From Caballeronia insecticola (GTDB lineage: Bacteria > Pseudomonadota > Gammaproteobacteria > Burkholderiales > Burkholderiaceae): DNA of 64,000 bases. Where the stretch lies: NCBI RefSeq assembly GCF_000402035.1, contig NC_021295.1, positions 124,001 to 188,000 of the forward strand, written 5' to 3'. This document shows, piece by piece, positions 1,246 through 14,248 of this stretch. Position numbers and translations under genes: made by a program. Numbering within the stretch: position 1 is the first letter of the stretch; each line of letters begins with the position of its first letter. A model generated the notes under the pieces. That model made no database searches. It worked only from the letters and a program-made list of their open reading frames with translations, and was not told where the DNA came from.

Positions 1246-2421
1246 GTGACTAGCGTCCCCCAATCCGGCATCGACCTTTGGGCCGACGATGTGCTCGTCG
1301 ATCCCTACCCGGCCTACCGGGCATTGCGCGAGCTCGGCGAAGTCGTCTATCTCACGCACTCGAAACTCTACGCCCTGACCGGCTACGACGTTATCAAGGA
1401 CGCGCTGGCCGACCCGACGCGCTTTTCTTCCGCTCAGGGCGTCGGCTTCAACGACGGCGTGAACCACGCGTTGCAGGGAACCTCGCTTGCTTCCGATCCG
1501 CCAGAGCACACCCAGTTGCGCGCCGCACTTTCCGAGAACCTCACGCCACGGGCACTGCGTGGTCTAGGCGAGCAGATCAAGGCCAATGCGCAGGCACTTG
1601 TGGCTCACCTGGTCGAGCAGCAGTCCTTTGATGCGATCGACGACATCGCCCGGCGCTTTCCGATCGGTGTTGTCGCCGACCTTGTCGGCTTCCAGGGTGA
1701 CGCCAGGGCGAATATGCTCCGCTGGGGGCAGGCCGCGATGGAAGTTATCGGGCCGATGAATCGGCGCACAGCAGAGAATTTCCCGATTGCGGGCGAACTT
1801 TACGGCTACTGCTCGCAGATCACTCAGGACGCGCTCACCCCCGGCTCCGTAGGCTGGGGTGTCTTCGAGGCGGAGAGGAAAGGGATCGTCCCTGAAGGCG
1901 CCGCCCGCCACATCATTCACCAATATCTAGGCGCTGGCCTTGATACGACACTTGCCGCGATCGGCAACACCGTCGCTCTCTTCGGGCGCTTTCCGGAAGA
2001 GTTTGCGAAAGTTCGTGACGATCTCTCGCTCGTTCCTTCGGCCTTCAACGAGGTGCTGCGTTATTACTCACCGGTCCATGTGTGGAGCCGCGTTGCGACG
2101 CAAGAGGTGAAGGTGGGGAACGTGAAGATCCCGGACGGCTCGCGTATTGCGATCATTCTGGGAGCAGGCAACCACGACGCGCGCCATTATAGGGACCCTG
2201 AAGTCTTCGACGTTACGCGCAACCCGATAGACCATCTGTCCTTCGGCTATGGCCCGCATGGATGCGCCGGTCAAGGCCTTGCTCGCATGGAGGGTGCAGC
2301 GATCATCGAGGCGCTTGCAACTCAAATCAAATCGTTTCGCATCGGCGAAGTCGCTCGCGCGCCGAGCAATGTCACGGTGTCGTTCGACACAGTTCCTGTC
2401 CTGGAGTTGGAGGCCGTATGA
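1246..2421 (+). CDS. Cytochrome P450, class I bacterial
   Basis: This 391-residue soluble P450 has all hallmark elements: I-helix GAGLDTT (229-235), the K-helix ExxR at E269-R272, and the heme loop FGYGPHGCAGQ with cysteine ligand C340. The 'GLDTT' I-helix and overall style resemble CYP199A-type para-substituted benzoate oxidases, but the substrate is not established by sequence. It would hydroxylate or O-dealkylate a small, probably aromatic, molecule using electrons passed from the reductase and ferredoxin encoded immediately downstream; the stop overlaps the ferredoxin ATG (ATGA). GTG is the start: the nearby in-frame-looking ATG upstream runs into a stop, and a GGAG-like site precedes the GTG. 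Confidence 0.92.
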   Translation: MTSVPQSGIDLWADDVLVDPYPAYRALRELGEVVYLTHSKLYALTGYDVIKDALADPTRFSSAQGVGFNDGVNHALQGTSLASDPPEHTQLRAALSENLTPRALRGLGEQIKANAQALVAHLVEQQSFDAIDDIARRFPIGVVADLVGFQGDARANMLRWGQAAMEVIGPMNRRTAENFPIAGELYGYCSQITQDALTPGSVGWGVFEAERKGIVPEGAARHIIHQYLGAGLDTTLAAIGNTVALFGRFPEEFAKVRDDLSLVPSAFNEVLRYYSPVHVWSRVATQEVKVGNVKIPDGSRIAIILGAGNHDARHYRDPEVFDVTRNPIDHLSFGYGPHGCAGQGLARMEGAAIIEALATQIKSFRIGEVARAPSNVTVSFDTVPVLELEAV

Positions 2422-2624
2422 TCAAACTGATTCTTGATCGCCCTCGTTGCGAAGGACACGGTCTGTGCGAAGAGGTGGCCGCACAGCTTCTTCACATCGA
2501 CGACGAAGGCTATGCCGCCATCGATGTGAACGAGATCAGTGAGGCGGTCCTGGCGACCGCTCAGGCTGCGGCGCGCGTCTGCCCGGTAGCCGCGCTCAAG
2601 CTCGTCGATGACGAGGCGACTTAA
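2418..2624 (+). CDS. 3Fe-4S type ferredoxin
   Basis: A 68-residue ferredoxin with CEGHGLC near the N-terminus (C11, C17) and a single C-terminal CP (C55). This three-cysteine pattern is that of the P450-associated 3Fe-4S ferredoxins (FdxE/HaPuxC-like), not of 2Fe-2S plant-type or 2[4Fe-4S] proteins. It overlaps the P450 stop by four bases and its own stop overlaps the reductase start, so the three proteins are translationally coupled. Role: one-electron carrier between the flavoprotein and the P450 heme. Confidence 0.88.
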   Translation: MIKLILDRPRCEGHGLCEEVAAQLLHIDDEGYAAIDVNEISEAVLATAQAAARVCPVAALKLVDDEAT

Positions 2625-3769
2625 TGAGCATCCTTCGAGATTCCCTACGCGATATCGTAGTGGTGGGCAGTGGCATCGCGGGTTTGACCGCTTGCGACAC
2701 GCTTCGCGCCGAAGGTTTCGATGGCCGAATCACGGTAATCGGCGACGAAGCGGTTGCGCCGTACAGCCGTCCTGCCTTGTCCAAGGCCATGCTACGCGAC
2801 GAGGATGATCTAACCTCGCACTTGTTGCCAGAGGCGACGCACGGGGCGATCGAACGGCGCGGCATCGCTGCCGTTGGTCTCGACGTGGATCGGCAGCGCG
2901 TGCGGCTCGCGGACGGCGATGAAGTGCCGTACGACGCGCTGATTATCTCCACCGGCACGCGAGCCAGACGTCTAACCCCTGGTAGTCGTAGCGACGAATA
3001 CACCGTGCGCACGCTCGCCGATGCATTGGCGCTGCGGGCACGACTCGCTTCGAGGCCTTCGGTCGTAGTGGTGGGCGGTGGTCCGCTCGGCATGGAGATC
3101 GCATCCGGCGCAATCGGGGCGGGATGTGCAACGACGCTCGTCGCCAAAGGCACGCCGCTCGCTGCGCATCTCGGCGCATTGCTCGCGGCGCGGTTTCACG
3201 ATGCTGCTGTTGCGCAGGGCCTCAAGATTGTCGCCACTGACTCCGCGAAGCTTGTGATGCGCGACGGTGCATCCGTGGTGGCGCTTGGCGACGGCACGGT
3301 GATCGAAGCGCAGGTGATCGTCTCCGCTGTCGGCGACGCCCCCAACGTCGAGTGGCTCGCCACCACCGGGTTACTTACTGGCGGCGCGCTCGTGGTGGAC
3401 CGGCGCGGCTTGGTTCGCCCGAACATTGCGGCCGTAGGAGACGTCGCTGCGTTCCCGCACGCGGGGCGCGTCGCACGTGTTCCGCTGTGGACGAGTGCCA
3501 TCGATCAAGCGAAAGTGGCCGCCGCCGCGCTCCTCAGGCTGGATGCTCCCGAACTCGCGTTCCAGCAGTACTTCTGGACAGAGGCTTTTGGTATCTCTCT
3601 AAAGGCCATTGGACCAACACCGGTTGCGGGTGAGGCGGAAATCGTGGAAGGCACCGGCGAGCAGGGGTTGCTTCGCTGGCGGCAAGCGGACGGTAGGGCG
3701 ACTGCCGTTGCGCTTGACTATCGCGTTCCGATCCCGAAGCTGCGTCGCGTGACTACGTGCAGCGTGTAG
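2624..3769 (+). CDS. FAD-dependent ferredoxin reductase
   Basis: The 381-residue protein has two Rossmann dinucleotide folds: an N-terminal FAD site (VVVGSGIAGLTA, residues about 12-23) and a central NAD(P)H site (VVVVGGGPLGMEIA). A second FAD contact appears as AAVGDVAAFPH. This is the putidaredoxin-reductase/rubredoxin-reductase layout, slightly shorter than the usual 400-410. Start ATG overlaps the ferredoxin stop (TAATG). It completes the electron-transfer chain for the P450. The downstream 230 bp to the next gene is AT-rich and shows no gene. Confidence 0.9.
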   Translation: MSILRDSLRDIVVVGSGIAGLTACDTLRAEGFDGRITVIGDEAVAPYSRPALSKAMLRDEDDLTSHLLPEATHGAIERRGIAAVGLDVDRQRVRLADGDEVPYDALIISTGTRARRLTPGSRSDEYTVRTLADALALRARLASRPSVVVVGGGPLGMEIASGAIGAGCATTLVAKGTPLAAHLGALLAARFHDAAVAQGLKIVATDSAKLVMRDGASVVALGDGTVIEAQVIVSAVGDAPNVEWLATTGLLTGGALVVDRRGLVRPNIAAVGDVAAFPHAGRVARVPLWTSAIDQAKVAAAALLRLDAPELAFQQYFWTEAFGISLKAIGPTPVAGEAEIVEGTGEQGLLRWRQADGRATAVALDYRVPIPKLRRVTTCSV

Positions 3770-3989: not shown

Positions 3990-3995
3990 AGGAGG
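3990..3995 (+). promoter_or_regulatory. Ribosome-binding site fixing the start at 4001
   Basis: AGGAGG lies five bases before the ATG at 4001. In-frame TTG (3959) and ATG (3962) codons upstream have no such site, so the shorter 354-residue product is preferred. Confidence 0.7.
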
Positions 3996-4000
3996 CGTAC

Positions 4001-5065
4001 ATGTGTGTTAAACACAGTCAGGGTGCTCTCGAACCCTTGCCGCCTTTTACGTCCCTCATCCTTGATCCTCCCAAAGACGAAGGCGTCAATCCAACCCGTG
4101 TCAATACTGTGCTCGGCCCTGTCGATGCCCGGCAGCTTGGCATCACGCTGTTCAGCGAATCGCTGCTGTGCGTGCTGCCCGGAGCTCAGTATGCGTACGA
4201 CATCAGGATTGATCGCGCCGAAGTGTTCGACGTGATAGCCGCCAAACTAACGGCGTTCAAGTCGGCAGGCGGGGGCACGATCGTCGATGCGACTGGCATG
4301 TTCCAAGGGCGCGATCTGCGCCTGTACGAAGCGCTGTCCCGTGCCACCGGCGTTCATATCGTCGCTTCCACGGGCCAAGGGCCGGAGTTCATGTTGGGCG
4401 GATATTTTCTGACGCCGCAGACCAATCCTCCCACGCCCTGGCCGGCCAGCAAGTTCGCCGAGTTGTTCGGGCGAGAGGTGAATGAAGGCATGGTGGTTCC
4501 TCGCCGGGAGCGACGTGCTCCGGCCGGAATGGTCGTCACGGCGGTCTCCCACAGCGGCATGACGCCTACCGATAGCAGCCTGGTGCGCGGGGCAGCACGT
4601 GCCGGGGAAACCTACGGGGTGCCCGTGTTGGTCCGTTGCGGCGCCGACGCCGTGGCCGACATGCAACTGGCCATCGACGAAGCTCTCGCGCCGGAACGCA
4701 TTGTCATGGGCGGAATGGATCGCCGTGACGCCGTTGTCAACGGCTGGCCCATGGTCGTGGCGCGCGCGGGTGCCCGGGTGGGCATCGACCACATTGGTTC
4801 GAGCGACGCGCTCTACGTCAGCGATTCTGAACGGGTGGCATTGATCGTCGAAGTGATCAACGCAGGCTATGCCGATCGAATTCTTCTGTCGGCCAGTGCC
4901 ACCGGGGTGGCATTCGGTGAACCTGGTAACGACATTCCCTACAGCGATGTGCTGACGAAGTTCGTGCCCATGCTCCAAGCGGCAGGGGTTTCCCAGGAGC
5001 ACATCGCACAGTTGCTGATCACGAACACCGCGCATCTGCTGAGCGTAAACGGGGAAGTCAAATGA
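4001..5065 (+). CDS. Phosphotriesterase-family pseudoenzyme (metal site lost)
   Basis: A 354-residue member of the phosphotriesterase (PTE) amidohydrolase family, clearly paralogous to the next gene: both share TRVNTVLG near the start, VHIVAST and a similar beta/alpha-barrel order. Every metal ligand is replaced here. The HxH pair is S52/S54 (LFSESLL), the bridging lysine is T180 (AGMVVTAVS), the strand 5 histidine is R212, the strand 6 histidine is G238 and the strand 8 aspartate is about A300. A metal-dependent hydrolase activity is therefore unlikely. Its ATGA overlap with the intact paralogue suggests it is made in equal amounts and may form a heteromer, a scaffold or a ligand sensor. It carries a 30-residue N-terminal extension absent from the paralogue. 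Confidence 0.85.
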   Translation: MCVKHSQGALEPLPPFTSLILDPPKDEGVNPTRVNTVLGPVDARQLGITLFSESLLCVLPGAQYAYDIRIDRAEVFDVIAAKLTAFKSAGGGTIVDATGMFQGRDLRLYEALSRATGVHIVASTGQGPEFMLGGYFLTPQTNPPTPWPASKFAELFGREVNEGMVVPRRERRAPAGMVVTAVSHSGMTPTDSSLVRGAARAGETYGVPVLVRCGADAVADMQLAIDEALAPERIVMGGMDRRDAVVNGWPMVVARAGARVGIDHIGSSDALYVSDSERVALIVEVINAGYADRILLSASATGVAFGEPGNDIPYSDVLTKFVPMLQAAGVSQEHIAQLLITNTAHLLSVNGEVK

Positions 5066-6039
5066 CACGTGTGAATACGGTATTGGGCACGATCGCGGCT
5101 TCGGAGCTCGGGTTTGTCGCAATTCATGAGCATATCGGCTACGGCATGCCGGGTTGCGAACTCGACAGCAAGTGGTGGAAGACGCCGGAACAGCGCTATG
5201 AAGAGACGGTGCCGAAGCTGCGCCAGTTTCACGAGAACACGAAGCCGTGGGGTGCCGCGACCTTCGTGGAAGCCACCGGTATCTGCAATGGTCGCGATAT
5301 CGACTATTACAAGTCCCTGTCCGACAAGACGGGCGTGCACATTGTCGCCAGCACGGGTTTTGTTGGTGGCGACACGGCATTGCCGTTCTTCGAGCGTGCG
5401 AGCGTCGAGTATCTGACCGACCAGTTCGTCCATGAGATCAGCGTCGGTATCGGTGACACCGGCGCCAAGGCCGGGATCATCAAGGTCGGCGTCAGTCGTG
5501 GCTTCAAGATGAAGGAGCTCGACCTGCGCATCTATCGCGCCGCGGCACGTGCCTCGCGGATCACCGGCGCGCCGATCTTCACTCATCTCGCGGTCGACTC
5601 CTCGCCGGCGTTGAATATCTTTGCCGAAGAGGGACTGCCTTGCCACAGGGTGTTGTTCGGACATGCCGATGATGGCGTGAGTCAGGGCTTGATCAACGAG
5701 AAAGCCCTTCTGGATGCGGGCGCGCGGATCGGCTTCGATACCTTCGGCTACGACCTCGAATTGCCCGACCCGCCTTTCTGGGGCCGCCACCGTCAGGAGC
5801 GTCTCCAGCACTTCCTGAGATTCCTCAACAGTGGCTTGGTCAAGCAGGTCCTTGCATCGGCGGATGCGAACTGCTCACCGCTGGGCTGGCCTGGCGTGAA
5901 AGGCCACACGGTGAATTATCTGTTCGAGCAGCTCATACCGGATCTGCACGCCGAAGGTATCGAAGACGCGCTCATCGACCAGTTGTTCGTTCGTAACACG
6001 GCCGAGTTTCTGACTCTGACGCCGATCTCCAATCAGTGA
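5062..6039 (+). CDS. Phosphotriesterase-family metal-dependent hydrolase
   Basis: A 325-residue (beta/alpha)8 amidohydrolase of the phosphotriesterase family. The binuclear centre is complete: H22 and H24 (IHEHIGYG), K141 as the carboxylated bridging lysine (AGIIKVGVS), H175 (PIFTHL), H201 (LFGHADD) and D268 (LASADAN). Family members hydrolyse lactones, esters or phosphotriesters; the true substrate is unknown. The start overlaps the stop of the metal-less paralogue by four bases. Context among an FAD monooxygenase and three further hydrolases points to a catabolic ester or lactone intermediate rather than a pesticide phosphotriester; that is inference. Confidence 0.9.
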   Translation: MTRVNTVLGTIAASELGFVAIHEHIGYGMPGCELDSKWWKTPEQRYEETVPKLRQFHENTKPWGAATFVEATGICNGRDIDYYKSLSDKTGVHIVASTGFVGGDTALPFFERASVEYLTDQFVHEISVGIGDTGAKAGIIKVGVSRGFKMKELDLRIYRAAARASRITGAPIFTHLAVDSSPALNIFAEEGLPCHRVLFGHADDGVSQGLINEKALLDAGARIGFDTFGYDLELPDPPFWGRHRQERLQHFLRFLNSGLVKQVLASADANCSPLGWPGVKGHTVNYLFEQLIPDLHAEGIEDALIDQLFVRNTAEFLTLTPISNQ

Positions 6040-6065: not shown

Positions 6066-7184
6066 ATGACATCGAGCACTTTGAAGGATCTGAATATCGC
6101 CGTTATCGGCGCCGGGTACGCCGGTGCGACCGCAGCGCTGGCGCTCAGCCAACTGGGCGCGACGGTCACGGTGTACGAGCAGGCGCAGGAGATCAAGGAA
6201 GTCGGGGCGGGGATTGGACTGCGTCCCTCCACGATGGACCAGTTCCGCAAGCTCGGCATCTTCGACCGTATCGCCGCCGTGACCTCGCCGAGCGACTGCT
6301 TTGAGATTCTGAGCGCTCACGGTCAGCGGATCGCGATGGAGGAATGGCCCGAAAAACAGGCCTTCGGTGCCAGCACGCATTTCGTGCACCGTGGCGACTT
6401 CATCGAGACGTTGCTGGGCACGCTTCCCGCAGGCATGGTGAAGCTGGACCACCGTCTCAGCCGAATCACCAGCAACGGCGACGGCGCGACAGCGATCTTC
6501 GAAAACGGCGTGACGGTGAACGCCGATCTGATCGTCGGCGCCGACGGCATCCGCTCGCAGGTGCGCAAGCATCTGTTCGGCGACCACCCCCCCGTATTTG
6601 CCGGCGAACACGCCTATCGCGCGGTCATCCCGGCGGCGGATACGTTCGGCCTGGTGGCCGACGGCAACCTTCGCATGTACGTAGGGCACGGCACCAAGAT
6701 CTATCTGTTGCCGCTCCACCATCGCAACGAGGTGTCGTTCGATGTCACTTGTCTTGCGACCGACTCCACGCCGGCGCCCGCCGTCAGCAAGACCGAGTTG
6801 ATGAACGTGGTGGCGGGTTTCGATGCGCAGTTGAAGGCCATCGCAGAGGGGCTCGACATGAGCAAGGTGAACCTGCGAGCCGTCTATGACATCGACCCGG
6901 TTCCCCTCTGGCATTCCAGATCGGTGGTGCTGATCGGCGATGCGGCTCATGCGATGCTGCACCACCAGGGGCAGGGTGCGAACTCGGCCGTCCTGGATGC
7001 CGGTGCGCTTGCCGAGAAACTCCGGGAGGCCGATTCGATTGCCGAAGCACTTGCGCAATTCCAGGCGAGCCGCAAGCCGGTCACCGATGAACTGCAGCGC
7101 CTGTCGCGCCAGGGTTGGAGCGAAGACGAGGTCCAGAGTGTCTTTCCCAACCAGCATCAGGGCGAGATCGCCGCAAGGAGCTAA
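6066..7184 (+). CDS. FAD-dependent aromatic-type monooxygenase
   Basis: The 372-residue group A flavoprotein monooxygenase (salicylate/6-hydroxynicotinate hydroxylase style) shows the N-terminal GAGYAGATAAL Rossmann motif, the DG motif in GADGIRSQVRK and the GD motif GDAAHAMLHHQGQGAN. It uses NAD(P)H and O2 to hydroxylate a substrate, usually an aromatic ring, often with decarboxylation. An in-frame GTG at 6036 overlaps the previous stop, but the ATG at 6066 places the FAD motif at the normal distance from the N-terminus. It is the only oxygenase in this operon and probably performs the ring-activating or Baeyer-Villiger-like step before the hydrolases. Confidence 0.88.
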   Translation: MTSSTLKDLNIAVIGAGYAGATAALALSQLGATVTVYEQAQEIKEVGAGIGLRPSTMDQFRKLGIFDRIAAVTSPSDCFEILSAHGQRIAMEEWPEKQAFGASTHFVHRGDFIETLLGTLPAGMVKLDHRLSRITSNGDGATAIFENGVTVNADLIVGADGIRSQVRKHLFGDHPPVFAGEHAYRAVIPAADTFGLVADGNLRMYVGHGTKIYLLPLHHRNEVSFDVTCLATDSTPAPAVSKTELMNVVAGFDAQLKAIAEGLDMSKVNLRAVYDIDPVPLWHSRSVVLIGDAAHAMLHHQGQGANSAVLDAGALAEKLREADSIAEALAQFQASRKPVTDELQRLSRQGWSEDEVQSVFPNQHQGEIAARS

Positions 7185-7187
7185 ATC

Positions 7188-8129
7188 ATGGCACTCCATC
7201 CTGCAGTTGCCGCGTTCATCGCTTCGCTGCCGCCTCCGCCGCCGGGACCGCTCGATCCTCAGGCCATGCGCGCGGCGGACGAGAGCCACGTTCCTCCGCC
7301 GGAGAAGCGGCTTCCCGTGCACTCCGTGTTCGACCGGAACCTGTCCACGTCTGCCGGTGAAATTCCCGTGCGCATCTACAAGCCGACGGCCGCGGGCGTC
7401 CATCCGGTGCTGGTTTATTTCCACGGTGGCGCGTTCTTTCTTGGCAGCCTCGATACCCACGATCATGTTGCGCGCGCGCTGGCCGACGCCACGCAGTCTG
7501 TCGTCGTTTCGGTCGGCTATCGGCTCGCTCCCGAGCATGCGTATCCAGCGGGCCTGAACGACTGCTACGCCGTGGTCCGGTGGATAGAACAGCATGGTCG
7601 CGGCCCGAGCGAGGACATCGGCTGGGACGGCCGCACCCTGGTCGTGGCCGGTGACAGTTCAGGCGCCAACTTCGCGGCTGCGGTCGCCACGATGGCCGTC
7701 GACGCGGGTCTGACATGTATTACGCATCAGGTGCTCTATTACCCGTCGCTCGATCTCGACTTCAATGTCGAGCGTTACGCGTCGCTGAAGAGCAACGCCG
7801 TCGGCAATGGACTGGAAACCGCAATGCTGAAGCCATTCAATGCGTTCTACCTCGATAGCGGTGCGAACCCCGCTGACCCGCTCGTGTCGCCCATCAAGCG
7901 ACAGGATCTTTCCGGGCTGCCGCCGGCACTCATCGTCACGGCGGAATGCGATCCTCTTCGTGACGAAGGCGAGTTGTATGGTCAGAAGCTGGAGCAGGCA
8001 GGCGTTCCTGCCACGATCCGCCGCTACGAATCGGCTGCGCATGGATTTGTCCAGCACTTCTCCTGGCTGCCCGAGTTCCAAGGTGTGTTCGCCGAGACCG
8101 CTGACTTCATCAGGAATGTAAAGCGATGA
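7188..8129 (+). CDS. Alpha/beta hydrolase, HSL (GDSAG) esterase family
   Basis: The 313-residue protein has the hormone-sensitive-lipase family oxyanion motif HGGAFFLG (about 79-86), the nucleophile elbow GDSSGANFA, an acid in DPLRDEGE and the histidine of SAAHGFVQ. It should cleave short-chain carboxylic esters in the cytoplasm; no signal peptide is present. Only 3 bp separates it from the monooxygenase and its stop overlaps the next ATG, so it is co-translated with the pathway. Confidence 0.9.
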   Translation: MALHPAVAAFIASLPPPPPGPLDPQAMRAADESHVPPPEKRLPVHSVFDRNLSTSAGEIPVRIYKPTAAGVHPVLVYFHGGAFFLGSLDTHDHVARALADATQSVVVSVGYRLAPEHAYPAGLNDCYAVVRWIEQHGRGPSEDIGWDGRTLVVAGDSSGANFAAAVATMAVDAGLTCITHQVLYYPSLDLDFNVERYASLKSNAVGNGLETAMLKPFNAFYLDSGANPADPLVSPIKRQDLSGLPPALIVTAECDPLRDEGELYGQKLEQAGVPATIRRYESAAHGFVQHFSWLPEFQGVFAETADFIRNVKR

Positions 8130-9061
8130 GCACGGTCGATATCCAGCCACTGTTTTCGCAGTGGGGGAGGTTCGGCCTCTACAGCTTTTTCATCGACGGA
8201 AGCGAGCCGGCGATTGTCGATACCGGCATCGCCGCATCGCCGGCGGAAGGCATTGCACCAGCCCTGAGGAAATTGGGGCGGCGCATCGAAGATGTGCGCT
8301 GGATTCTTCTTACACACGGTCACATCGATCACATCGGCGGGGCGCACGCATTATGGGAGCTGACTGGCCGCAAAGCCAAGGTCGTCATCCACGAGGCAGA
8401 TGCACCGTTCCTGCGTTCACGCCGAACCCATGTCGAAGAATATCTGGCAGCGCGTGGCCGATATATCGACGATCCGGAAGGGGAGGCGAAGCTCACGGCG
8501 GCCTGTGAGGTCGCCATTTCCGGCGAGATGGAACCGCATCAGGTGGTTCGCCATGGCGACAAGTTATCGCTTGGGCCGGACGTGACGATCACGGTGCACT
8601 CCGTGCCGGGTCACACGGCAGGTTCGGTGGCGTATGTAGTGGAAGGGCAGGGCGATGTCTTCGTCGGCGATGCCGTGCAGATTCACGGTGCAGCCAACGG
8701 ATTTCCGAGTTATGCCGATCCGGATGCGTATCGCGCCAGCCTGTTGCACCTTCGCGACCACGTCAGACCGAACCGCCTGTTTCTCGGCCATCCCTATCGC
8801 AGCCAGGGTGCGGAGTCGCCGGGCGTGGTGCTGGACCGCAAACAGGCAGCGGCCAGCATTCAGGAAAGCCTCGGCATCGAGGCGAGGGTGCGCGCCGCCA
8901 CTGAGCAATTCGGCCTCGACGGCACGGCTGTTGCCACGGCTCCCTGTTCGCCCTTTTGCTGTATCGCGCATCACTTGCGCTACGACGGCGACCCGACCCT
9001 GGAACCCTCGCCATTCTTTACCACGATGCACGGTTACTTTCACAAGGGCTATCGCTCATGA
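8126..9061 (+). CDS. Metallo-beta-lactamase-fold hydrolase
   Basis: A 311-residue MBL-fold protein. The zinc motif THGHIDHIGG (HxHxDH) is followed by a further histidine in PGHTAGS and an aspartate in FVGDAVQ, giving a full dinuclear site, with a late histidine in LGHPYRS. Family members include glyoxalase II-like thioesterases and lactonases. The C-terminal region (residues about 230-311) extends beyond the core fold and has a CSPFCC cysteine cluster. Overlaps both neighbours by four bases. Precise substrate unknown. Confidence 0.87.
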   Translation: MSTVDIQPLFSQWGRFGLYSFFIDGSEPAIVDTGIAASPAEGIAPALRKLGRRIEDVRWILLTHGHIDHIGGAHALWELTGRKAKVVIHEADAPFLRSRRTHVEEYLAARGRYIDDPEGEAKLTAACEVAISGEMEPHQVVRHGDKLSLGPDVTITVHSVPGHTAGSVAYVVEGQGDVFVGDAVQIHGAANGFPSYADPDAYRASLLHLRDHVRPNRLFLGHPYRSQGAESPGVVLDRKQAAASIQESLGIEARVRAATEQFGLDGTAVATAPCSPFCCIAHHLRYDGDPTLEPSPFFTTMHGYFHKGYRS

Positions 9062-10743
9062 TGGTTGTACACAAAGATTTGCGCGTGCCGATGCGCGACG
9101 GCATTCATCTGGCGGCCGACGCCTACCATGCGCCGGGCGATATGCCGCGTCCGGCGCTGGTCGCGCTAAGCCCTTACGGCAAGGAGTTGCAGGCGCTTGC
9201 GCTCTCCATTCCTCCTCAGAAGCGTCCTTCTCCGTTGTGGGACGGATGCATCGAGGCGGGCGACATCGCGCGCGTGGTGAAGGAGGGCTACGTACACGTG
9301 ATCGGCGACGTACGCGGCTCCGGCGCTTCAGAGGGCGAGCACATCGGCAACTACAACGCCGGCGGCGTTCCACTGGGGCAGGATGCCTACGATTTCATCG
9401 AGTGGGTCGCCGCGCAGCCATGGTGCAACGGCGTGGTCGGGATGATCGGAATTTCCTACTTCGGCTCGATGCAGATCTTCGCTGCGGCCGAACGGCCTCC
9501 GCATCTCAAGGCAATTTTCGTCAGCGGCGGGCACTTCGATTTTTATGAAACGACCTATCACGGCGGTGTCATGTGGTTCATGCCGCGTGCCGCACGAGAG
9601 GGCCGTGGCGGCGACTCGGGCTGGGCTTTCACGCAGCGGCACAAGTCTCGCATGCTGGCGACCTGCTCCGAGGAGGAAATCAAGCGGCGCGTGGCCGAGC
9701 GACTAGCCGACCCCGACGTGGCGGCCTGGCCCAACCTCGTGCATCTGCTGAATTATCCGATTCACCACGAGTCCTGGTTCGACATCGTCATGAATCATCT
9801 CGATGGCGAGTGGTACGAAGAGCAGAACCCGATCAATTTGGCCAGAAACATCGATATCCCCGTGTACTTGCAGATCAACCAGGGCCGCGGCTGGACCGTA
9901 GACGGAACGATCGAGCTCTTCGATGTGCTGAAAGGCCCGAAGAAACTGGAGATCGGACCCTATCCGCCGATGCAGACACGCCCCTGGATCGATGACCACG
10001 ACACCATGTTCCGCTGGTACGACTACTGGCTGAAGGGCATCGACAACGGGATCATGGACGAGGCAGCGGTGAAGGTGCATGTCGAAGGCAGCCGCACATG
10101 GATGACGGCCGATCATTGGCCCGTCACGCCAGTCGAATACAGGCCATTGTACTTGCGTACCCGTGGCAAGCTGGCGTTCGAGCCGGAGCCCCTGCACATG
10201 GAGCACGCGCATCCGGAAGGCTTTTATCAGGCGCCACTGACTATCGTGGACAAGGTCGAGAAGCTGATGTGGTCCACGGAACCGTTCCAGGCCGCGACAT
10301 CGGTCCATGGCGTGGGCGCTGCGCATCTCCATGTAGCCATTGACCAGGACGATACGAATCTGATCCTGCGCGTGTGGGACGAGGCGCCGACCGGCAAACG
10401 CCAGCTTGTCACGACAGGCTTCCTCAAGGCATCGCATCGCGAACTCGATGAACGATCCAGCGAAGGCAACCCATATCACCCACACACACGCAGTGTGCCT
10501 GTCGATCCCGGCGTGATCAATGAATACGTCGTGCGGCTCTACCCCTTCGCGAATGAATTCAAGGCCGGCCACAAGCTGGTCGTCGAGCTCATGTGCAACG
10601 AGCCGCTGGTGGACGAGCACAATTCGCTGTTGCCGCCCGATGCATTTCATCTCCCTGTTGGACGGGCAGTGACGCACACGATCTATCGGGATGCGACGCA
10701 TCTGTCGCGGCTCGTGCTGCCGTTTGCGTCAGCCCGAACTTAA
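9058..10743 (+). CDS. CocE/NonD-type serine hydrolase (X-Pro dipeptidyl-peptidase S15 family)
   Basis: At 561 residues this matches CocE-like acylhydrolases. It begins with the typical RVPMRDGIHLAADAY strand, then VHVIGDVRGSGASEGE, the nucleophile motif GMIGISYFGSMQ (GxSxxG), an alpha cap, and a C-terminal jelly-roll domain (from about residue 330). Relatives hydrolyse cocaine, glutaryl-7-ACA or other bulky esters and amides. The chosen ATG overlaps the preceding stop; translation reads MMVVHKDLRV. It is the third serine/metal hydrolase after the monooxygenase and probably acts on a different ester or amide bond of the same compound. Confidence 0.9.
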   Translation: MMVVHKDLRVPMRDGIHLAADAYHAPGDMPRPALVALSPYGKELQALALSIPPQKRPSPLWDGCIEAGDIARVVKEGYVHVIGDVRGSGASEGEHIGNYNAGGVPLGQDAYDFIEWVAAQPWCNGVVGMIGISYFGSMQIFAAAERPPHLKAIFVSGGHFDFYETTYHGGVMWFMPRAAREGRGGDSGWAFTQRHKSRMLATCSEEEIKRRVAERLADPDVAAWPNLVHLLNYPIHHESWFDIVMNHLDGEWYEEQNPINLARNIDIPVYLQINQGRGWTVDGTIELFDVLKGPKKLEIGPYPPMQTRPWIDDHDTMFRWYDYWLKGIDNGIMDEAAVKVHVEGSRTWMTADHWPVTPVEYRPLYLRTRGKLAFEPEPLHMEHAHPEGFYQAPLTIVDKVEKLMWSTEPFQAATSVHGVGAAHLHVAIDQDDTNLILRVWDEAPTGKRQLVTTGFLKASHRELDERSSEGNPYHPHTRSVPVDPGVINEYVVRLYPFANEFKAGHKLVVELMCNEPLVDEHNSLLPPDAFHLPVGRAVTHTIYRDATHLSRLVLPFASART

Positions 10744-13194: not shown

Positions 13195-13508
13195 CCACGC
13201 GTCCAATTTGTGGAGTGAATGTCCGGCGTTCAAAATTCGCTGGCAAGATGTTCACTCCCAATCCTATTCATGCTCGACGAGACCGTTCTAGTTACCATTA
13301 TAGAAATTCGCCTGGACACCTTTTCGCGAACGGGGGCGCAGTAGATTGGGGTGAACGTCTGTAGCGAGGAGATCGTGTGCAGGCCGGCGCGCCCCTTGAA
13401 CGACTGTTGCACACCGAGAGCTGCCCAAGGTGTGCTAGTCGGCCGACCGGTCGCTGAGAGTCGTGTACCGAAGTTGGCGCGGCGGTCGCATTCACCCGGC
13501 GACGCACG
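13195..13508. other. Interval without a recognisable gene
   Basis: About 310 bp between the MFS stop and the mobile-element mosaic. A minus-strand frame runs through it as a continuation of the chimeric transposase, but the residues are non-homologous and codon use is poor. I see no gene, terminator or repeat I can support. Confidence 0.4.
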
Positions 13509-14123
13509 TACTGCGTACTTCGGTTTTCCGTGTGCGCGCAGGTACTTCGACAGCGCCTCGAAATAGCTGAAGGTCAACTCGGTCGCGGTGAAGTGCAGCG
13601 TCATCAGCCGTCCGGCGGCGTCATCGATGAACACCAGCAGCGTGCATTGCGGCGCTCGCTCTTCAAACCAGTGATGTTCGCTGCCGTCGATCTGAATCAG
13701 CTCACCCAGGCACGCGCGCCGATCACGCGGCTGGTGAAGGCTGGGCGGGCGCTGCTTGCGGGGAACCCAGAGTCCTGCGGCCGTCATCAACGTTCGCACG
13801 ATCTCGACAGCCCGTCTGATGCCGTGGCACTCCCGCAACTTCTCGCACGCCAGGATGGGTCCGAAGTTTGATTTCACGAAGGGCCGGACGAACTGGGCCG
13901 CGATGAGTCGCACGTTGTGACCAAGGCGTGCCAGCACACGGGCCCAGTGATGTGCGCTGCCACAGGCTTCCATGACGACACGGCTTGCAGGCCGGTTGAA
14001 GAAGAACGGCACGAGCTGCGCGCGTTTGAGTACCTTGCTGTGAATCGCGCCGGTATCAGGCTCGACATAGTGAATCTGGAAATCGCGCTTGGCCAGGTCG
14101 ATGGCAATGATCGCGGGTTCCAT
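13509..14123 (-). mobile_element. Chimeric transposase relic: IS110 N-terminus joined to ISNCY-type fragment
   Basis: One open minus-strand frame joins two unrelated transposases. The first 86 residues (14123 to about 13866) are the DEDD domain start of an IS110 transposase: AIIAIDLAKRDFQIHYVEPD, VVMEACGSAHHWAR and QFVRPFVKSN. At that point, exactly where IS110 proteins continue to the catalytic D of NDYIDAEAI, the frame switches to an ISNCY-type integrase: VRTLMTAAGLWVPRKQRPP, LGELIQIDGSEHHWFEE and LLVFIDDAAGRLMTLHF, ending near LRAHGKPKYAV. Neither catalytic domain is complete, so the product is not a functional transposase. The frame stays open to 13230 without homology. Confidence 0.75.
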
Positions 14124-14248
14124 CCGGTTCTCCTTGACGGCGGACTGCCGAACCAACAATGTCGCACGCTAACGAGCAGCACCTACGGCGTCTGGCTGCC
14201 CGCTTGAGGCGGGAGGCGACCATTCCATCTACTTGGCAGAACGCGAGA

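What the first reader, a model, noticed from the sequence alone, without database searches (positions are those of the whole stretch)
4001..6039. Phosphotriesterase pseudoenzyme translationally coupled to its intact paralogue
Sequence shows: two adjacent PTE-family proteins overlap by ATGA. In the second, all six metal ligands are present (H22, H24, K141, H175, H201, D268). In the first, the aligned positions are S52, S54, T180, R212, G238 and about A300, so every ligand is lost while the fold text is kept. Known: PTE-family enzymes are dimers. Inference: the inactive copy may be an obligate partner, allosteric subunit or ligand sensor, an arrangement I do not recall in this family.
Basis: partly seen in the sequence, partly recalled or inferred. 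Interest (0 to 1): 0.72.

Follow-up and report, generated by a model that had tools for sequence, protein, structure and literature searches.

The report
Metal-less enzyme twin beside active one
A soil bacterium carries, side by side, a normal metal-dependent hydrolase and a look-alike that has lost every metal-binding residue; the look-alike is not a dying copy but a conserved protein found next to its working twin in each genome we could inspect, most likely as a helper subunit.

The parts
4001..5065 (+). A: ligand-less phosphotriesterase-family protein (354 aa)
3990..3995 (+). AGGAGG, likely ribosome-binding site of A
   Evidence: read from the sequence; GGAG or GGAGG-like sites precede A in the other loci printed, least clearly in L010 and L006
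4001..4096 (+). N-terminal tail of A (residues 1-32), absent from B; invariant Cys2 and His5
   Evidence: C and H in 118 of 118 rows that reach the N-terminus, of 120 rows; residues 1-30 pLDDT under 50
4373..4441 (+). Loop 3 of A (residues 125-147), longer than in B; 16 of 23 residues invariant
   Evidence: residues 134-142 pLDDT under 50 in the monomer model
5062..5065 (+). ATGA start/stop overlap of B and A
   Evidence: -4 in 8 of 9 loci, -1 in L009
5062..6039 (+). B: phosphotriesterase-family protein with all six metal ligands (325 aa)
   Evidence: PF02126 151.6 bits; ligands kept in 120 of 120 listed homologues
6066..7184 (+). FAD-dependent monooxygenase, next in the operon
   Evidence: PF01494; conserved behind B in 9 of 9 loci
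7188..8129 (+). alpha/beta hydrolase (hormone-sensitive-lipase type)
   Evidence: PF07859; 9 of 9 loci
8126..9061 (+). metallo-beta-lactamase-fold hydrolase
   Evidence: PF00753; 9 of 9 loci
9058..10743 (+). CocE/NonD-type hydrolase
   Evidence: TIGR00976 over its cut-off; 9 of 9 loci
1246..3769 (+). cytochrome P450, small ferredoxin and ferredoxin reductase, 231 bases upstream of A
   Evidence: a similar order upstream of A in L003-L007, not in L008 or L010

Best explanation
A is a pseudoenzyme of the phosphotriesterase family that works as a non-catalytic partner of its active paralogue B. Shown: A has the (beta/alpha)8 fold, has lost all six ligands, is conserved in that state across Pseudomonadota, is under purifying selection, and is encoded next to B in all 10 genomes inspected. 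Inferred: the two pair through the family's usual dimer face into an A-B heterodimer, in which A's enlarged, nearly invariant loop 3 and its conserved tail shape or cover the groove that leads to B's metal site, so that A stabilises B, sets its substrate range or gates access. B would hydrolyse an intermediate made by the P450 and/or FAD monooxygenase of the same gene cluster; the substrate is unknown.
For: Ligand loss in 120 of 120 listed homologues of A against full retention in 120 of 120 of B. A-B adjacent in 10 of 10 genomes; in two genera 8 of 202 genomes carry A and each has B next to it, with no lone A or B. 9 of 120 listed B clusters have the same longest-contig length as one of 125 listed A clusters. 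A and B distance matrices agree over 18 pairs (r = 0.68, 0 of 5000 permutations as high). dN/dS 0.125 for A, 0.048 for B, against 0.139 (alpha/beta hydrolase) and 0.147 (ferredoxin reductase), means over 10 pairs of 5 close genomes. The most conserved part of A is loop 3: 16 of 23 invariant against 65 of 295 elsewhere (Fisher p = 4.7e-6, segment chosen after seeing the profile), and six of nine residues at 134-142 are invariant although the monomer model leaves them unordered. Passages of PMC3468530 and PMC7084321 say that lactonases of this family are homodimers, that the interface lies near the active site, and that a groove at the interface joins the two active sites.
Against: No complex was predicted or measured. 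The ATGA overlap is not special: HSL-MBL and MBL-CocE are also -4 in 9 of 9 loci. Distance agreement is expected from shared descent alone. Disorder in the model may reflect the thin alignment (loop 3 of A is missing from B rows). That loop 3 of A corresponds to the groove residues Tyr97/Ile98 of SsoPox is from recall of the family, not from an alignment made here. B reaches actinobacteria and Kluyvera where I saw no A, so B may work without A there. A also keeps conserved pocket residues (T180, R212, D240, H264) that would fit an independent binding or catalytic role.
Confidence: 0.55

Rival explanations
1. A is a binding protein or sensor: its emptied pocket holds a pathway metabolite or an anion, with R212 and H264 at the mouth of the barrel, and it acts on its own or on B.
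For: Pocket-side positions are conserved in a new pattern: T180 120 of 120, R212 110 of 120, H264 119 of 120, D240 119 of 119, S299 114 of 120. Losing the lysine and the aspartate together with the histidines removes the anionic ligands along with the metals.
Against: The six former ligand positions themselves are only average or poorly conserved for this protein (percentiles 0.49-0.89 of site entropy). No DNA-binding or signalling domain in A.
Confidence: 0.2
2. A is a metal-free enzyme that catalyses a different step of the same pathway with new residues.
For: Invariant polar residues E129, Q140, N142, E159, N161, E170, R171, R172, T180 and the tail Cys2/His5; the segment 123-176 is the most conserved part.
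Against: No known metal-free member of this family is among the solved relatives listed; A evolves 2.17 times faster than B.
Confidence: 0.13
3. A helps B to fold or to load and carboxylate its binuclear metal centre, without staying bound; the tail Cys2/His5 could carry the metal.
For: Invariant Cys2 and His5 in a tail that B lacks (118 of 118 rows that reach it).
Against: Phosphotriesterases expressed on their own in E. coli are active (recalled), so a dedicated helper is not generally needed.
Confidence: 0.09
4. A is a decaying duplicate with no function.
For: Faster than B (dN/dS 0.125 against 0.048).
Against: Open reading frame in all loci, low dN/dS, 81 of 318 barrel residues invariant in 120 rows, a long separate branch from B.
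Confidence: 0.03

Closest known systems
Bacterial phosphotriesterase / OpdA (PF02126)
   Different: A has none of the six ligands. Neither protein reaches NCBIfam's curated cut-off for organophosphate hydrolase, E. coli-type phosphotriesterase homology protein or phospho-furanose lactonase.
Phosphotriesterase-like lactonases (SsoPox, SisLac, GkaP)
   Same: B's best PDB matches are of this kind (GkaP-type chains such as 4h9v and 3tn4, E 8e-34 to 2e-33). Homodimers with the interface near the active site (PMC3468530, passages).
   Different: B has Thr227 (121 of 121 rows) where the lactonases keep an arginine at the end of beta7 (position recalled; visible as FDRFG in 3tn4). A is ligand-less.
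Catalytically dead paralogue activators: trypanosome AdoMetDC prozyme and deoxyhypusine synthase
   Same: A dead paralogue conserved beside an active one; PMC5201418 and PMC3663545 (search listings only) report activation through heteromers.
   Different: Other folds, eukaryotes, and activation there is measured; here nothing is measured.
Pseudo-dihydroorotase (pDHO) of Pseudomonas aspartate transcarbamoylase
   Same: An inactive chain of the wider amidohydrolase superfamily needed for its partner's activity (PMC7053772, abstract and passages).
   Different: pDHO's partner is a different enzyme (transcarbamoylase), not its own active paralogue, and it is not of the phosphotriesterase family.

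Membership tests
Phosphotriesterase family PF02126 (A) | Profile match over the curated cut-off and (beta/alpha)8 barrel | tested here: met
Phosphotriesterase family, catalytic members (A) | HxH, Lys (or Glu), His, His, Asp binuclear metal ligands | tested here: not met
   S52, S54, V179, R212, G238, S299; none native in 120 of 120 listed homologues
Phosphotriesterase family, catalytic members (B) | HxH, Lys, His, His, Asp binuclear metal ligands | tested here: met
   kept in the window and in 120 of 120 listed homologues
Phosphotriesterase-like lactonase (B) | Active-site arginine at the end of beta7 (position recalled) | tested here: not met
   Thr227 in 121 of 121 rows
Phosphotriesterase-like lactonase (B) | Lactone hydrolysis | not testable with these tools
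   no assay
Dead-paralogue partner (prozyme-like) | Paralogue conserved without catalytic residues | tested here: met
Dead-paralogue partner (prozyme-like) | Occurs only together with the active paralogue | tested here: inconclusive
   A with adjacent B in 10 of 10 genomes and 8 of 8 carriers among 202 genomes; genomes outside Pseudomonadota could not be searched
Dead-paralogue partner (prozyme-like) | Physical heteromer | not testable with these tools
   structure tool takes one chain; no complex prediction
Dead-paralogue partner (prozyme-like) | Activation or stabilisation of the active paralogue | not testable with these tools
   no assay

The most novel reading that the evidence does not exclude
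A and B form one composite active site: the invariant loop 3 of A and its Cys2/His5 tail reach across the dimer groove and take part in binding or turning over the substrate at B's metal centre, so that a homodimeric family has evolved an obligate half-dead heterodimer with one working site whose pocket is built from both chains.
Probability: 0.2. Interest if true: 0.75.

Novelty: new variant of a known kind. Interest (0 to 1): 0.6.

Why it matters
Phosphotriesterases are a model family for enzyme evolution and dimer-coupled loop dynamics (PMC7608688 passages: the two chains of one enzyme can drift apart in conformation). A natural pair in which one chain has lost the metal site and is kept beside the other would show in genes what that work infers from dynamics, and would make testable what the dimer is for, since one site can be studied with a natural dead partner. 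It also means that databases which call such proteins 'phosphotriesterase' mislabel a non-catalytic family.

Tried and rejected
Decaying pseudogene: rejected. Substitute metal ligands in A: no replacing set found; Asp at the H201 position in 45 of 120 homologues is one lone carboxylate. ATGA overlap as evidence for a complex: dropped after the control. Conservation of the former metal site as evidence for a new active site: not borne out for the six positions. Recent tandem duplication: not supported, A and B are about 30% identical and sit on long branches (2.14 and 1.87 changes per site) that join with weak support (81/63); the tree has warnings of long branches.

Led nowhere: scans of viral contigs with P0165 and the two alignments gave no relative; plasmid records hold only matches under 60% identity (9 for A, 13 for B); 392 genomes of a family that I took for Enterobacteriaceae from genome size and gene content held no B, so the Kluyvera case stayed open; order, phylum and family samples found A in 1 of 399, 1 of 398 and 3 of 299 genomes, the own genome counted in each, which only shows that the pair is rare; the third protein search, from the deepest A (P0111), gave 5 new A clusters and no actinobacterial one, but lists are cut at 120. 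A first model of A from A-family rows alone was poor (mean pLDDT 59.7) and was replaced by one that also used B rows. Neither B nor any complex was modelled. Foldseek searches of PDB and of the viral library were never run; only VIA-align was. The pathway's substrate: a paper search listed nothing that I could tie to this gene set. Precedent searches: searches returned 0 papers; searches listed no title on a ligand-less phosphotriesterase or such a pair; the library lacks most subscription journals.

Full report
What is there. The window lies in a 6.96 Mb genome. I take the genus to be Caballeronia, because the same-genus genomes G417, G400 and G406 match by contig coordinates the named loci L004, L005 and L006. 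At 4001-5065 and 5062-6039 lie two phosphotriesterase-family genes, A and B, overlapping by ATGA. Both match PF02126 over its cut-off; the genome has no third match. Behind them come an FAD monooxygenase, an alpha/beta hydrolase, a metallo-beta-lactamase-fold protein and a CocE-type hydrolase; in front, 231 bases away, a P450 with its ferredoxin and reductase. It reads as a catabolic gene cluster; the substrate is unknown.

Ligands. By alignment of A, B and 120 homologues of A, by a larger tree alignment and by profile-profile comparison (99.9% probability, 303 columns), B's H22, H24, K141, H175, H201 and D268 correspond to A's S52, S54, V179, R212, G238 and S299. A six-sequence alignment gives T180 in place of V179; neither can be a carboxylated lysine. 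In the 120 listed homologues of A (70-92% identical) the columns hold S93 G10 C9 A5 R2; S113 A5 C1; A75 C22 V10 S9 T3 R1; R110 Q5 K2 S2 A1; G66 D45 S7 E1; S114 G3 N2 C1, with one gap in the first, second and fifth columns. So no native ligand is left at any position in any of them, though 45 have Asp at the H201 position. In B, 120 of 120 listed homologues keep all six.

Not a relic. Mean dN/dS (Nei-Gojobori, 10 pairs of 5 close genomes) is 0.125 for A, 0.048 for B, 0.139 for the alpha/beta hydrolase, 0.147 for the ferredoxin reductase, 0.090 for the FAD monooxygenase, 0.072 for the metallo-beta-lactamase-fold protein and 0.063 for the CocE-type protein. A is thus held about as tightly as ordinary genes of the cluster, less tightly than B. 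Over 18 paired A and B the total tree distance of A is 2.17 times that of B. In a 38-row tree A and B form separate, fully supported groups on long branches (2.14 and 1.87); their sister relation has weak support (81/63) and the program warns of long branches. The loss is therefore old, older than the split of the Burkholderiales, Paracoccus and Marinobacter carriers named or, if the cluster moves between species, older than its spread.

Pairing. All 9 loci read in full (window, L003-L010) have B directly behind A: overlap of 4 bases in 8, of 1 base in L009. A tenth genome (G1481, L036/L043) shows the same -4 overlap. In the genus of the window 4 of 58 genomes, and in a second genus (G1415's; Paraburkholderia by matching coordinates of L003, L007 and L008) 4 of 144 genomes carry A; each has B adjacent and none of the 202 shows a lone B, although B scores E 2e-24 to 2e-27 with A as query and would have been listed (in one search at most 14 candidates a genome were scored). 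The 4 further Paraburkholderia genomes with a match have an unrelated single member (25-28% identity) with H, H, E, H, H, D. Against this: B is wider than A in my lists. Listed B names include Rhodococcus, Nocardioides, Microbacterium, Streptomyces, Modestobacter and Kluyvera, with no A named from these; the lists are capped at 120 and A evolves faster, so this is open, not a proof of B without A. The Kluyvera B (89% identical, 5.16 Mb contig) is the best candidate for a B without A.

Overlap control. The -4 overlap also holds for HSL-MBL and MBL-CocE in 9 of 9 loci. Translational coupling is real but ordinary here and does not single out A-B.

Where A is conserved. The six former ligand positions are average to poor for this protein (site-entropy percentiles 0.78, 0.49, 0.89, 0.59, 0.81, 0.51). 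The best conserved part is loop 3 (residues 125-147, enlarged relative to B): 16 of 23 invariant against 65 of 295 in the rest of residues 33-350, Fisher p 4.7e-6; the segment was chosen after seeing the profile. The matching stretch of B, 99-128, is not enriched (16 of 30 against 112 of 290, p 0.086). A also has a tail that B lacks, with Cys2 and His5 in 118 of 118 rows that reach it, and F16 and L19 in 120 of 120. Some inner positions are fixed in a new pattern: T180, D240, H264 and R212; D240 and H264 correspond to Asp233 and His254 of P. diminuta phosphotriesterase (numbering recalled). Passages of PMC3468530, PMC4323659 and PMC7084321 say that lactonases of this family are homodimers with a mainly hydrophobic interface near the active site and that a groove at the interface joins the two active sites; residues named along it include Tyr97 and Ile98, which by recall stand at the end of beta3, the root of loop 3. 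So the part of A kept most strictly lies, by homology, at the partner's side of the active-site groove. That is the main reason why I prefer a partner role to an independent enzyme or sensor.

Verdict. Ligand-less members are common in biology (review PMC10211241, passages only, does not mention amidohydrolases or phosphotriesterases), and dead paralogues that activate their twin are known elsewhere (PMC5201418, PMC3663545, listings only), as is an inactive amidohydrolase-fold subunit, pDHO (PMC7053772, abstract and passages). I found no report of it in this family. Hence: new variant of a known kind.

Noticed in passing
window 13230-14159 (- strand): An open frame whose start resembles an IS110-type transposase (by eye) and whose later part looks like another transposase; Pfam gave no match. 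Probably insertion-sequence remains at the edge of the catabolic cluster.
   Followed up: partly
L008:9068-9865 and L009:9124-9864: In these two loci a GntR/UTRA regulator gene lies just upstream of A, whereas in the window the regulator found is a TetR gene ahead of the P450; control of the A-B operon seems to have been swapped between lineages.
   Followed up: partly
window 4001-4015 (A residues 1-5): A begins Met-Cys-x-x-His with Cys and His invariant; after removal of Met this would leave a free N-terminal Cys with a nearby His, a possible metal-binding or reactive group.
   Followed up: no
L021, L023 (genome G761): A Pseudomonadota genome outside the class carries two phosphotriesterase-family genes about 1.4 kb apart; the one in L021 keeps the ligand motifs by eye, so close pairs in this family need not include a ligand-less member.
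   Followed up: partly
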